32,667 bases of DNA from Solirubrobacteraceae bacterium (lineage in GTDB: Bacteria; Actinomycetota; Thermoleophilia; Solirubrobacterales; Solirubrobacteraceae), in the NCBI GenBank assembly GCA_017882425.1, contig JADGPM010000315.1:1-32667 (forward strand), read 5' to 3'. Positions 21,355 through 26,368 of the stretch are shown one piece after another. Each line of letters starts with the position of its first letter. Position 1 is the stretch's first letter. A program made the position numbers and the translations under genes. Below the pieces are notes generated by a model. It was not told the DNA's origin, did no database searches, and saw only the letters and a list, made by a program, of their open reading frames with translations.

Positions 21355-22549
21355 CGGCCCGTGATCGTGCCTGATCGCGCGCGCCGCTGACGGCCCGCAG
21401 GTGCACGGACCCGCCGCGCGCGATGTTCATGAGCAGCCCGACGCCCGCCAGCAGGACGACGAGGTTCGTCGACCCGTAGGAGATGAAGGGCAGCGGGACG
21501 CCCGTCAGCGGGGCGATGCCCAGGACCACGAAGACGTTGAGCATCGCCTGACAGAGCACGAGCGAGGTCAGCCCGGCGGCGAGCAGCGCGGCGTAGCGAC
21601 CCTTCGCGCGCTGGGCGATCCGCAGCCCGGCCCACGCGACGACGCCGTAGACGACGAGCAGGCCCAGCACTCCGACGAGGCCCAGCTCCTCACCGATGAC
21701 CGCGAGGATGAAGTCGGTGTGCGCCTCCGGCAGGTAGAAGATCTTCTGGACCGACTCGCCGAGCCCGCGTCCGAACAGCCCGCCGGAGCCGAGCGCGATC
21801 TGCCCCTGCACCGCCTGAAAGCCCGTGCTGCCGGCGTGATGCCAGGGGTCGAGGAACGACGTGAGCCGGTCGCGGCGGTAGGGCGCGCTCATCGCGTACA
21901 GCAGGACGAACGTGCCGCCGACACCGGCTGCGCCGCCGAGCCAGCGGATCGGAACGCCCGCCGCGATCAGCATCGCCGCGATCGTGAACGCGATCACGAG
22001 CGCCGTCCCGAGGTCCGGCTGGGAGGCGACGAGCAGCGCGGCGAGACCCGCCACGAGCCCGAGTGGGACGAGCTCCTGCCAGCGCCGGAACCCGCGCGGG
22101 CGCTCGGCGAGGAACTTCGCCGCGTACATGACGAGCGCGAGCTTGGCGATCTCGCTGGGCTGGAAGGTGAGAGGGCCCGCGCCGAGCCAGCGGCGGGCGC
22201 CGTTGACCGAGACGCCGAAGCCCGGCAGTCGCACGAGCACCAGCAGGCCGAAGGAGATCGCCAGCAGCGGGCCCGTGAAGCCGAGGATCCGCTGCAGCGG
22301 CATCCGCGCGATCGCGGACATCGCGATGAACCCGGCCGCGCCGTACATGACGTACTTCACGAGGAACGCGGTGCCGTCCCCGCCGCCCTTGATGACGGTG
22401 CTCGCCGACGACGCGCTGTACACCATGACCGCCCCGAAGGCGACGAGGCACAGCACCGCCGTCAGGAGGACGTCCTCCTCGATCGGGCGCGTGCGTCCGC
22501 GCCGCGCGGGCGCGGGCGGGGCAGCGGCGCGGGCGGCAGCGCGGGCCAT
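21266..22549 (-). CDS. ftsW: SEDS-family peptidoglycan polymerase FtsW
   Basis: 427 aa; GARRWLGAGPLTFQPSEIAKLALVMYAA, HTDFILAVIGEELGLVG, GIAPLTGVPLPFISYGSTNLVVLLAGVGLLMNIAR. The frame stays open to 21266, inside murG. Confidence 0.94.
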   Translation of the reverse strand: MARAAARAAAPPAPARRGRTRPIEEDVLLTAVLCLVAFGAVMVYSASSASTVIKGGGDGTAFLVKYVMYGAAGFIAMSAIARMPLQRILGFTGPLLAISFGLLVLVRLPGFGVSVNGARRWLGAGPLTFQPSEIAKLALVMYAAKFLAERPRGFRRWQELVPLGLVAGLAALLVASQPDLGTALVIAFTIAAMLIAAGVPIRWLGGAAGVGGTFVLLYAMSAPYRRDRLTSFLDPWHHAGSTGFQAVQGQIALGSGGLFGRGLGESVQKIFYLPEAHTDFILAVIGEELGLVGVLGLLVVYGVVAWAGLRIAQRAKGRYAALLAAGLTSLVLCQAMLNVFVVLGIAPLTGVPLPFISYGSTNLVVLLAGVGLLMNIARGGSVHLRAVSGARDQARSRADGDADLRHRSGRDGGARRSGAGGGRRAAG

Positions 22550-22621
22550 CCCGGCCCCCTTCGCTGTGCTGACCGCGAATCCTGCCGGGCGTGCGTGCAG
22601 GGAGACGCCACGTGGACCCTC

Positions 22622-23965
22622 TCACGAGGACGTCACCAGCGTCTTGAAGTGCGCCCCCCGCTCCTCATAGCCGCCGGGGTACTGGTCGAAGCTCGCGCAG
22701 GCCGGGGAGAGCAGCACGACCTCGCCGGGTTCGGCAGCGGCGCGGGCGGCGGCGACGGCCTGCTCGAGGTCGCCGCTGCGGATCAGTTCGGCAGCGTCGC
22801 CGAGCGCGCCGGCGATGGCGCCGGCGTCCTCGCCGACGAGGTATGCGGCCCGGACGTGGATCGCGACCGCGTCGCGCAGCGGCGCGAAATCCTGGCCCTT
22901 GCCCTGGCCTCCGAGGATCAGGTGCACGGGGGCCGTGAAGGCGTCGAGCGCCACGAGGGTGGACGCGACGTTCGTCGCCTTCGAGTCGTTGACCCAGAGA
23001 ACCCCGCCGACCTCTGCGACGTCCTCGATCCGGTGCTCGACCCCCGGGAAGGTGCGCAGACCCTCGGCAACGGCCTCCGGCTCGATGCCGGCCGACAGCG
23101 CGGCGGCGGCGGCGCCCATCGCGTTCTCGAGGTTGTGGGCCCCGCGGATGCGCACGTCGGAGGCGCGCATCACGTCAGCCCCCTGCCAGGTGATGATCCC
23201 GTCGCGCAGCGCGAGGTCGACGTCCCAGTGTGGGCCGAAGGTGACCCGCCGGCCCTCGCCGCCGGCCTGCGCGAGCAGCTCCGGCGGCCCGATCGCCACG
23301 TGGTCGGACCCCTGCCGCGCGAAGATCCGCAGCTTGGCGGCGAGATAGTCCTCCATCGTCCCGTGCCGGTCGAGGTGGTCGGGCTGGACGTTGAGGATGA
23401 GCGCGACGTCGGGCGCGAACGCGACGGTGTCCTCGAGCTGGAACGAGCTGGCCTCGCAGATCACCGTCGCGTCGCCCTCGCGATCGGCCGCGAGCGTGCT
23501 GACGGCGAGGCCGACATTCCCGGCGACGTCGACGGGCCGGCCCGCCGCCCGCCAGATCGCGCCGAGCAGCTCCGCGGTCGTCGTCTTCCCGTTCGTTCCC
23601 GTCACGGCGACGAACGGGCGCTCCACGAGCCGCCACCCCAGCTCCAGCTCGCCGTAGACCGACACGCCCCGCCGCCGCGCCTCGACGATCACCGGCGCCT
23701 CGCGCGGCACGCCGGGGCTCTTCACGACCGCCCGCGCACGGCGGAGCTCCACGAGGCCATCGACCCCGGTCCACACCTCCATGCCCAGCGCCCGCAGCGC
23801 CTCGGCCTCCGGCGGCTTCCCGGAGTCCACGCACACCACGGCCTCGCCCCTCGCCCACAGCGCCCGAGCGGCCGCAGCACCGGACCGCCGCAGGCCCACC
23901 ACCAGCCAAGGACCAACCGGAATCGGGGGACGCCGTCGAGGAATCACAGAACCCTCCACAAGCAC
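22622..23965 (-). CDS. murD: UDP-N-acetylmuramoyl-L-alanine--D-glutamate ligase
   Basis: 447 aa; VAVTGTNGKTTTAELLGAI, LNVQPDHLDRHGTMEDYLAAK, LGGQGKGQDFAPL; GTG start at 23965 or 23947. Confidence 0.94.
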   Translation of the reverse strand: MLVEGSVIPRRRPPIPVGPWLVVGLRRSGAAAARALWARGEAVVCVDSGKPPEAEALRALGMEVWTGVDGLVELRRARAVVKSPGVPREAPVIVEARRRGVSVYGELELGWRLVERPFVAVTGTNGKTTTAELLGAIWRAAGRPVDVAGNVGLAVSTLAADREGDATVICEASSFQLEDTVAFAPDVALILNVQPDHLDRHGTMEDYLAAKLRIFARQGSDHVAIGPPELLAQAGGEGRRVTFGPHWDVDLALRDGIITWQGADVMRASDVRIRGAHNLENAMGAAAAALSAGIEPEAVAEGLRTFPGVEHRIEDVAEVGGVLWVNDSKATNVASTLVALDAFTAPVHLILGGQGKGQDFAPLRDAVAIHVRAAYLVGEDAGAIAGALGDAAELIRSGDLEQAVAAARAAAEPGEVVLLSPACASFDQYPGGYEERGAHFKTLVTSS

Positions 23966-23983
23966 GACCGATGGATCGTGGAT

Positions 23984-24052
23984 GCCTGAGGCCGCACGCG
24001 GGCCGGGTGCTGTGGCAGAGCCACTGCCCCGGCCCCGCGGGTGGCCTCAGGC
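23984..24052. repeat. 69-nt near-perfect inverted repeat (long hairpin) in the murD/mraY gap
   Basis: GCCTGAGGCC...GGCCTCAGGC outer arms; inner CGCGGG/CCCGCG, CCGGG/CCCGG, GC/GC, GTGGC-AGA-GCCAC. About 30 paired positions with two mismatches and two 1-nt bulges. A second hairpin gcgcc-acga-ggcgc follows at 24051-24064. Confidence 0.85.
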
Positions 24053-24071
24053 GCCACGAGGCGCGGTCGCA

Positions 24072-25040
24072 TCATCGGATTGACGCTCGATAGAGCGTGA
24101 ATCCGATCGCCGCGCACACGATGGCGATGATCCAGAACCGCAGGATGATCTTCGTCTCCGACCATCCCCGCATCTCGAAGTGGTGGTGGATCGGGGCCAT
24201 CAGGAACACCCGCCGGCGCCACGTCTGGAACGTGAACACCTGGATGATCACGCTCAGCGCCTCCATCACGAAGATGCCGCCGAGCAGCACGAGCAGGAAC
24301 GACGTGTTCGTCATCACCGCCATCCCGCCGATCGCTCCGCCGAGGCCCAGCGAGCCGGTGTCCCCCATGAAGATCGTCGCCGGGAACGCGTTGTACCAGA
24401 GGAATCCCACGCAGGCGCCGACCACGCACGCGCTCAGCAGCGCCAGGTCGGACTCCCCCGTCGTCAGGTACGTGATGCCGATGTACGCGAGCATCACGAT
24501 GCCCGCGCAGCCCGCGGCGAGGCCGTCGAGGCCGTCGGTCAGGTTCACGGCGCTCGTCGTGCCCGCGATCACGAGGTAGACGAGCACCGGGAAGAAGACC
24601 CCGAGGTCGACGCTCGCGTCGACGACCCGCAGGCGCACGGTCGTGGAGATCCCCGCCTTCTGCGTGGCGACCCACCACAGCGCGAGCGAGATGATCACGG
24701 TGAGGACGAGCTTCGTGCGCCCGCGCAGGCCGAGCGAGCGGCGCCGCACGATCTTCGTGTAGTCGTCGGCGAACCCGATCCCCGCGCACGCCACGGCCGT
24801 GCCGTAGACGCCCACCGCGCGCCACTCGTAGTTCGAGAGCACGAGGAACGGCACCGAGATCGCCAGGAAGATGATGATCCCGCCCATCGTCGGCGTGCCG
24901 GCCTTCGTGTGGTGGCCGGCCGGGCCCTCTTCGCGGATCGTCTGGCCGAACTCGCGGTCGTGGAGGAAGGCGATGAAACGCGGGGACAGGAAGACGCAGA
25001 GCAGCAGCGCGACCGTCCCGCCGATGAGGACCTCCCCCAT
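24072..25040 (-). CDS. mraY: Phospho-N-acetylmuramoyl-pentapeptide-transferase
   Basis: 322 aa; GTPTMGGIIIFLAI, FADDYTKIVRRRSLGLRGRTKL, NLTDGLDGLAAG, FMGDTGSLGLGG, APIHHHFEMRGWSETKI. Confidence 0.97.
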   Translation of the reverse strand: MGEVLIGGTVALLLCVFLSPRFIAFLHDREFGQTIREEGPAGHHTKAGTPTMGGIIIFLAISVPFLVLSNYEWRAVGVYGTAVACAGIGFADDYTKIVRRRSLGLRGRTKLVLTVIISLALWWVATQKAGISTTVRLRVVDASVDLGVFFPVLVYLVIAGTTSAVNLTDGLDGLAAGCAGIVMLAYIGITYLTTGESDLALLSACVVGACVGFLWYNAFPATIFMGDTGSLGLGGAIGGMAVMTNTSFLLVLLGGIFVMEALSVIIQVFTFQTWRRRVFLMAPIHHHFEMRGWSETKIILRFWIIAIVCAAIGFTLYRASIR

Positions 25041-26368
25041 CAGGCGCGCTCCGCCTGCACGCCCGGGGCGTCGGCGAGCGCCTCGGCGACGACCTCGAGC
25101 CCGACTCCGCGCGAGGCCTTGACGAGCACCGTGTCGCCGTCGCGCAGCAGGCCCGGCAGCGCCCGCGCGGCGTCCGCGGCGCCCGCGAGCGCTGTCGCAC
25201 CCGCACCGAACGCCTCGGCGGCGGCCTGCGCGAGCGGACCGACGGTCACGAGCAGCTCGACCCCGGCGGTGCGGGCGTGCCGGCCGAGCTGCGCGTGGAA
25301 GGTGCGCTCCTGCGACCCGAGCTCGAGCATGTCGCCGAGCACGGCGACGCGTCGCGCGCGCGCCGTCTCGGCCAGGTCGTCGAGGGCGGCCCGCATCGAC
25401 ATCGGATTGGCGTTGTAGCAGTCGTTGATGACGACGATGTCGCGCCCGAGCTCGATCCGCTGCCCGCGCATGCGCGAGAGCGCGACGCGGACCGCACCCG
25501 CGGGCTCGACGCCAATCGCCCGCGCGGCGGCCAGCGCGGCAAGCGCGTTGAGGCGCATGTGGGCCGAGTCGAACGGCAGCGTGAGGCGCTCGGGCAGGGT
25601 GTCGACGTCGCCGCCGGGCCCGAAGGTCACGGTGATGACGTCACCGCGGGCGTAGGGGTCCAGCAGCGCCTCGCCGGCGGGGACGACGGCCGTCCCGCCC
25701 GCGGGCAGCGCGCCCAGCAGCTCGGCCTTCGTGCGGGCGATCGCCTCGATGCTGCCGAGCAGCTCGAGATGCACGGGGCCGATGTTCACGACGACGCCCA
25801 CGTCGGGGCGCGCGATCGCCGCCAGCTCGGCGATCTGGCCGCCGCCGCGCATCGCCATCTCCAGGACGAGCACCTCCGTGCCGGCGGGCGCGCCGAGGAT
25901 CGTCAGCGGCAGGCCGATCTCGGTGTTGAGGTTCTGCTCGGTCGCCACCACCCGGCGGTAGGGCTCGAGCATGCCGCGCAGGATGTCCTTCGTCGACGTC
26001 TTCCCCGTCGAGCCGGTGATGCCGATCACCGCGCATCCGAGCTCCTGGCGCCATGCGGTCGCCAGGCGCTGGAGGGCGGCCAGCGGGTCGGGCGCGGCGA
26101 GCAGCGCCCCCGGAGCCGTCCCGCTCGCCGCCGCGGCGTGCTCGGGCGAGGCCAGCGCCCCCCAGGCGCCCGCGGCGAGCGCCGCGGCGGCGAACGTCCC
26201 GCCGTCGGCGTGCACACCGGGCAGGCCGACGAAGAGGTCCCCGGGCCCCGCGTCGCGCGAGTCGATGACGACCCGCTGCGGGCCGCGGTCCCCGGGCCCG
26301 GCGGATGCGGGCGCGACCAGCCGGGCGCCCGCCTCCCGGGCGACGCGCTCCGCGTCCCAGCCGCGCAT
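25040..26368 (-). CDS. murF: UDP-N-acetylmuramoyl-tripeptide--D-alanyl-D-alanine ligase
   Basis: ATG at 26368 (MRGWDAERVAREAGARLV); IGITGSTGKTSTKDIL; VVINDCYNANPMSMRAALDDL; TGATG overlaps on both sides. Confidence 0.95.
   Translation of the reverse strand: MRGWDAERVAREAGARLVAPASAGPGDRGPQRVVIDSRDAGPGDLFVGLPGVHADGGTFAAAALAAGAWGALASPEHAAAASGTAPGALLAAPDPLAALQRLATAWRQELGCAVIGITGSTGKTSTKDILRGMLEPYRRVVATEQNLNTEIGLPLTILGAPAGTEVLVLEMAMRGGGQIAELAAIARPDVGVVVNIGPVHLELLGSIEAIARTKAELLGALPAGGTAVVPAGEALLDPYARGDVITVTFGPGGDVDTLPERLTLPFDSAHMRLNALAALAAARAIGVEPAGAVRVALSRMRGQRIELGRDIVVINDCYNANPMSMRAALDDLAETARARRVAVLGDMLELGSQERTFHAQLGRHARTAGVELLVTVGPLAQAAAEAFGAGATALAGAADAARALPGLLRDGDTVLVKASRGVGLEVVAEALADAPGVQAERA

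What the first reader, a model, noticed from the sequence alone, without database searches (positions are those of the whole stretch)
23984..24052. Long hairpin in the only wide gap within the mur block (murD/mraY)
murE-murF-mraY join by 1-nt overlaps and murG-murC by 4 nt, but mraY and murD are separated by ~106 bp filled by a 69-nt inverted repeat: ~30 paired positions, AGA loop on plus (TCT on minus), two mismatches and two bulges, plus a second small hairpin at 24051-24064. There is no U tract, so a classical intrinsic terminator is not the obvious reading. Alternatives are a dispersed palindromic (REP/MITE-like) element, an RNase III processing site, or a structured element tuning expression downstream of mraY. 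The compensated stem with internal symmetry looks selected rather than random, but that is inference.
Basis: partly seen in the sequence, partly recalled or inferred. Interest (0 to 1): 0.7.

Follow-up and report, generated by a model that had tools for sequence, protein, structure and literature searches.

The report
Dispersed DNA hairpin after stop codons
The hairpin between mraY and murD is one copy of an apparently undescribed family of about 105-base palindromic repeats, scattered through Solirubrobacterales genomes almost always directly behind the stop codon of a housekeeping gene and in one fixed orientation; it looks like a small mobile DNA element rather than a terminator or a dedicated RNA switch.

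Summary
The hairpin is real and larger than described: 23965-24069, about 105 nt, filling the space between the mraY stop and the murD ribosome-binding site (RNA fold z = -9.6 and -6.7 on the two strands). It is a repeat: the same genome holds 8 full-length copies plus deleted remnants. A covariance model finds it in 29 of 232 genomes of the order inside its own family (Solirubrobacteraceae by matching public contigs) and 3 outside. In 15 same-genus relatives mraY/murD lacks it (14 have only a short spacer), so the window copy is a lineage-specific insertion. In the own genus 32 of 38 sites begin -2 to +17 nt from a stop codon, all with the gene's orientation (hppA, sufB, sepF, rpmB, guaA, metK, ftsZ and others), often inside operons; two sit behind tRNA-Lys. 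Stem pairs covary strongly, but G-U pairs are rare and no commoner than A-C mismatches, unlike an RNase P control, so the palindrome seems kept at DNA level. No U tract, Rfam match or RAYT transposase. The same core also sits at the centre of ~170-nt TA-flanked MITE-like elements in other genera. Best reading: a non-autonomous mobile palindromic element, REP/ERIC/MITE-like, with unknown mobiliser.

The parts
23965..24069 (-). Full-length copy of the dispersed palindromic element (sense strand = minus strand, co-oriented with mraY and murD)
   Evidence: Folding; CM hit G000:C96:23965-24068, 105.9 bits; BLASTN copies elsewhere in the genome
23984..24016 (-).
   Evidence: Inverted repeat I1, 82% complementary
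24020..24052 (-). 5' half of the main stem (sense)
   Evidence: Inverted repeat I1
24050..24060 (-). Conserved 5' core motif CTCGYGGCGCC
   Evidence: Invariant or near-invariant in the copies aligned first; recognisable in most others
23974..23984 (-). Conserved 3' core motif CATCCRCGATC
   Evidence: Invariant or near-invariant in the copies aligned first; recognisable in most others
24064..24069 (-). Outer arm CGACCG, pairs with CGGTCG at 23965-23970; diverged from other copies in a complementary way
   Evidence: Fold; comparison with other copies
24072..25040 (-). mraY, upstream gene; stop TGA at 24074-24072, 2 nt before the palindrome
   Evidence: ORF; Pfam PF00953, PF10555
23952..23957 (-). 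Likely Shine-Dalgarno GGAGGG of murD, downstream of the element
   Evidence: Sequence, 4-5 nt before GTG 23947; inference
22622..23947 (-). murD, downstream gene (ORF could be extended to 23965)
   Evidence: Pfam PF08245, PF02875, PF21799

Best explanation
The hairpin is a copy of a non-autonomous mobile palindromic DNA element, about 105 nt, with a conserved bulged core and a variable tip, found so far only in Solirubrobacterales. Shown: it is dispersed and multicopy; the copy between mraY and murD is an insertion that relatives lack; copies lie directly 3' of stop codons (or of a tRNA), in one orientation; their arms covary; the pairing is kept about equally on both strands. Inferred: it spreads as a DNA hairpin recognised by some enzyme acting in trans (no partner gene was identified), and survives where it falls between a stop codon and the next ribosome-binding site. 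At this locus it most likely leaves mraY and murD intact (murD keeps its own Shine-Dalgarno) and acts on mRNA only as a passive 3' barrier or spacer that breaks the stop-start closeness seen in relatives.
For: Copies in the own genome: 5 further full ones at 73-85% identity plus partial ones, and 8 full-length by CM. Empty site: 14 of 15 relatives with a readable mraY 3' end have a short mraY/murD spacer and no hairpin. sepF/proC shows the same: in G009 the stop is followed by CGACG then CCGGGACACG, and in G000 the element lies between that stop and the same CCGGGACACG. Orientation and position: and, as a test on ten copies not used before, (10 of 10). Tandem arrays in G003 and internal-deletion copies. 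Covariation: 188 double-change cells against 52 +/- 6 in shuffles and at most 38 in slid controls; 134 against 44 in other genera. Strand symmetry: G-U 28 and A-C 30 of 1045 pairs, 18 and 35 of 632, against 28 and 4 of 369 in RNase P RNAs of the same family. No U tract, no Rfam family.
Against: No transposase or other mobiliser found; the RAYT/Y1 family PF01797 is absent from G000, G003, G021 and G023, which carry many copies. No target-site duplication could be established for the stop-adjacent class. Strict orientation and near-flush placement behind all three stop codons is more than simple survivorship predicts and could mean function. Some copies appear retained by descent at the same gene across genera (hppA 0.68-0.75 identity, lepB 0.84, against a background of 0.575). 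The G-U/A-C test is mixed within the own genus when restricted to well-conserved pairs (20 against 8), though G-U is still only 2%.
Confidence: 0.72

Rival explanations
1. A functional mRNA 3'-end element: a protein-bound or exonuclease-blocking hairpin, kept by selection behind the stop codons of well-expressed housekeeping genes to stabilise or delimit their mRNA segment inside operons.
For: Strict sense orientation and closeness to stop codons; recurrent use of the same genes in different genomes and genera: hppA, guaA, sufB, sepF, rpmB, lepB; conserved mismatches in the stem.
Against: G-U pairs are rare and about as common as A-C mismatches, unlike RNase P RNA. Absent at the same genes in most relatives, where ordinary short hairpins or nothing follow the stop. 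At several shared genes the copies are no more alike than unrelated copies.
Confidence: 0.18
2. Transcription terminator of unusual form (hairpin without U tract, possibly bidirectional).
For: Long stable hairpin directly after stop codons; in other genera core-bearing longer palindromes lie between convergent genes.
Against: No U tract. It lies inside co-directional pairs that are normally co-transcribed: mraY-murD, sufB-sufD, sepF-proC, mIHF-gmk (downstream names read from the sequences). In G058 the hppA copy is followed by a separate ordinary terminator-like hairpin.
Confidence: 0.05
3. A chance or locally evolved palindrome maintained only by replication template switching (quasipalindrome correction), not a family.
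For: Template switching can create and maintain hairpins with compensatory changes (PMC8794818, abstract seen), and outer arms do change in a complementary, locus-specific way.
Against: Conserved core sequence shared by copies at unrelated loci and genera. Template switching may shape the arms but cannot explain the dispersal.
Confidence: 0.03

Closest known systems
REP elements (GTAG- and CGTC-tagged, RAYT-associated; PMC3733652)
   Same: Dispersed, palindromic, mostly downstream of coding regions; CGTC REPs also lack a dedicated transposase
   Different: REPs are 20-40 bp with an unpaired GTAG/CGTC tag; this element is about 105 nt, bulged, without such a tag at its foot, and no Y1/RAYT gene is found in the genomes richest in it
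ERIC (127-bp enterobacterial repeat) and similar small mobile sequences (PMC2229807)
   Same: Similar length, imperfect palindrome, intergenic, within transcribed regions, no known transposase (partly from own knowledge)
   Different: Different phylum; no sequence relation seen, though ERIC was not aligned; here orientation and distance to the stop codon are nearly fixed
TA-flanked MITEs with terminal inverted repeats (RUP, Correia and similar; from own knowledge)
   Same: Elements in other genera carrying the same core have 34-nt inverted arms and TA-type flanks, some in identical copies
   Different: The class found in the window has no arms of that kind and no recognisable target duplication
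Integron attC sites (from own knowledge)
   Same: Conserved bulged basal hairpin with a variable tip, behind stop codons in fixed orientation, pairing conserved as DNA
   Different: No GTTRRRY / RYYYAAC boxes seen; genes are chromosomal housekeeping genes, not cassettes; integron integrase not searched

Membership tests
REP element | 20-40 bp palindrome with unpaired GTAG or CGTC tag at one end | tested here: not met
   Copies are about 93-115 nt; no GTAG or CGTC tag at the foot in the aligned copies, by inspection
REP element | RAYT (Y1 transposase) in the genome or flanking | tested here: not met
   PF01797 has no hit in G000, G003, G021 or G023; G000 is only about 81% complete
MITE | Terminal inverted repeats shared with a transposon | tested here: inconclusive
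   Present as 34-nt arms in the longer class of other genera; not in the window's class; no parent transposon was found (the one candidate examined, L225, was not an IS)
MITE | Target-site duplication | tested here: inconclusive
   TA/TNA flanks in the longer class; none demonstrable for the stop-adjacent class
ERIC | Sequence homology to the 127-bp enterobacterial consensus | not tested
   ERIC consensus was not aligned; one copy has no match in the plasmid or phage collections
Intrinsic terminator | GC hairpin followed by a U tract | tested here: not met
   No terminator-like site in 22400-25200
Known structured RNA | Match to an Rfam family | tested here: not met
   0 matches at gathering threshold in the window
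Integron attC site | R' and R'' boxes GTTRRRY / RYYYAAC | tested here: not met
   By inspection of aligned ends
Integron attC site | IntI-type integrase | not tested
   Not searched

The most novel reading that the evidence does not exclude
A mobile DNA hairpin that is placed, by a still unknown enzyme, in fixed orientation flush against gene 3' ends, repeatedly at the same housekeeping genes in different genera, and whose core also colonises the tips of unrelated MITE palindromes: a small module that goes to hairpin tips or gene ends rather than to a sequence motif.
Probability: 0.25. Interest if true: 0.8.

Novelty: new variant of a known kind. Interest (0 to 1): 0.6.

Why it matters
Bacterial palindromic repeats are usually explained as RAYT-driven REPs or transposase-driven MITEs. 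This family has neither partner visible, yet sits with almost fixed orientation and spacing behind stop codons, even inside essential operons such as the mur/fts cluster. It gives a clean case for asking how such elements choose gene ends, and a caution that covariation in a palindrome can reflect DNA-level pairing rather than an RNA structure.

Tried and rejected
REP/RAYT mobilisation: no PF01797 in the genomes richest in copies. Intrinsic terminator: no U tract. Known RNA: no Rfam hit. Insertion of the core into pre-existing terminator hairpins: attractive because some arms are locus-specific, but at mraY/murD the relatives have no hairpin and in G058 the element lies upstream of a separate terminator-like hairpin; kept only as a possibility for MITE tips, where core-less palindromes with similar arms exist. 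L225 (G049) first looked like an IS bounded by the MITE arms; the sequence and ORFs showed only a half arm behind the stop of a gene whose start runs off the fetched piece. A pattern hit in a Kiritimatiellaeota MAG (L030) shows no palindrome on reading and is taken as chance. tRNA control for G-U content gave nothing usable, replaced by RNase P.

Full report
Observation. The hairpin is present and far beyond chance. The best inverted repeat of the window is 23984-24016 / 24020-24052, and folding extends it to 23965-24069, z = -9.6 on the plus strand and -6.7 on the minus strand, 0 of 200 shuffles as good (ssDNA z = -7.4). The mraY stop is 24074-24072 and the likely murD start is GTG 23947 behind GGAGGG, so the element occupies the space between a stop codon and the next ribosome-binding site. 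mraY and murD identities are supported by Pfam. The murD/ftsW gap (72 nt) is also wide but unstructured.

It is a repeat. A search of the same genome (3.09 Mb, 351 contigs, about 81% complete) finds five more full copies at 73-85% identity and several partial ones. They share CTCGYGGCGCC near the 5' foot and CATCCRCGATC near the 3' foot of the sense strand, which is the minus strand here. A pattern scan of public genomes found matching contigs in Solirubrobacteraceae MAG Prado029. A covariance model built from nine copies gives 8 full-length copies in the own genome, 12-17 in G003, 16 in G006 and smaller numbers in many genera. Of 232 genomes of the order, 29 in the own family and 3 outside it have matches at E <= 1e-4. 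In a phylum sample of 198 genomes only two genomes, both of the own family, match. No match in the plasmid or phage collections with one copy as query. No Rfam family.

It moved into this site. In the same-genus relatives whose mraY 3' end could be read, 14 of 15 have a short mraY/murD spacer without a hairpin; in G006 murD lies about 0.77 kb further on, again without the element. At sepF/proC, G009 has the stop followed by CGACGCCGGGACACG, while G000 has the element between the stop and CCGGGACACG. G003 carries tandem copies about 107 nt apart. One copy (L010) has lost the whole inner hairpin.

Position and orientation. In the own genus (G000, G003, G006, G013) 38 sites were examined. In 32 a gene with the same orientation ends -2 to +17 nt from the element start, mostly within 8 nt. 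Two lie about 7 nt behind a tRNA-Lys gene. Two genes read into the element and by inspection end at the TGA of the core. Two lie too near contig ends to score, one of them with a TAG 14 nt upstream. None is reversed. Ten G006 copies fetched afterwards as a test all obey the rule. Among copies of other genera one reversed case was seen (L157). The upstream genes are housekeeping genes: hppA, sufB, rpmB, guaA, lepB, secG, ftsZ, mIHF, sepF, metK, ahcY, purH. TGA, TAG and TAA all occur, so a single stop-codon motif is not the target. Many copies lie inside co-directional gene pairs. Gene calls here rest on open frames and third-position G+C, not on a gene finder.

Structure is maintained, apparently as DNA. 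On 32 copies of the own genus 91.7% of cells are paired, with 188 double changes against 52 +/- 6 in shuffles and at most 38 in slid controls. Twenty copies from other genera give 134 against 44. These alignments are fitted to the model, which favours pairing. If the sense RNA were selected, G-U should exceed A-C. Observed G-U: A-C is 28: 30 and 18: 35; restricted to pairs that are mostly Watson-Crick it is 20: 8 and 4: 16. Four RNase P RNAs of the same family give 28: 4, with G-U at 7.6%. So pairing is about strand-symmetric, as expected for a DNA hairpin or for replication template switching (PMC8794818, abstract only), and less so for an RNA element. The within-genus filtered count is the weak point of this argument.

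A second class. In other genera the core lies at the centre of elements about 170 nt long with 34-nt inverted arms of several unrelated sequences (GATGRYTGATTCCACG, GGGYCCGTSCAAGAACAA, AGAACCTGTTTCA, GGGAGCGTCTCTCAACAAG), flanked by TA-type sequences and often between convergent genes. Identical copies occur in G021 and G059. Palindromes with the same kind of arms but no core, and with other inserts at the tip, exist in G046 and G051. Whether the core was inserted into them or deleted from them is not decided.

Descent or re-insertion. Copies behind the same gene in different genera are on average slightly more alike (0.624) than unrelated ones (0.575). hppA copies across three genera (0.68-0.75) and lepB (0.84) look inherited, whereas sepF, rpmB and most guaA pairs are at background. 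Concerted evolution within genomes (0.705) could blur this.

Explanation. The most likely account is a non-autonomous mobile DNA palindrome. Dispersal, lineage-specific insertion and covariation are shown; the mobilising enzyme, the reason for the fixed orientation and any effect on mraY/murD expression are inferred or unknown. RAYT is not the mobiliser on present evidence. It resembles REP, ERIC and MITE elements but fails or cannot be shown to meet their defining features. The literature library held no description of such a family in Solirubrobacter; the closest surveys are PMC3733652 and PMC2229807. That search covers only open-licence papers, so novelty is provisional.

Noticed in passing
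L222 (G046:C556:6979-7033), L221 (G051:C17:46073-46130), L223, L224: Core-less MITE palindromes of about 55 bp (TA-GATGGTTGATTCCACGGCC...), and copies with other hairpins nested at the tip, in genomes where similar arms carry the core.
   Followed up: partly
L075, L076, L079, L080, L081 (G003): Tandem arrays of 2-3 copies with about 107-nt period and a G/T-rich spacer (GGGGCGTTGG-like) behind sepF, guaA, secG, rpmB and one further gene.
   Followed up: partly
L113 (G006:C6): mraY and murD are separated by an extra stretch of about 770 nt in this relative.
   Followed up: no
L002, about 1615-1655 (G000:C239): A perfect palindrome GATCATTCCGATCATCACGTGATGATCGGAATGATC spans the hppA stop codon just before the element.
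   Followed up: no
L072 and L073 (G003): The upstream reading frames seem to run into the element and end at the TGA in its core GCGCCTGA, so the element may supply the stop codon.
   Followed up: partly
L090, L091 (G013): Two related genes ending CYTCTSCGNNTGCG, each followed flush by a near-identical diverged copy of the element.
   Followed up: no
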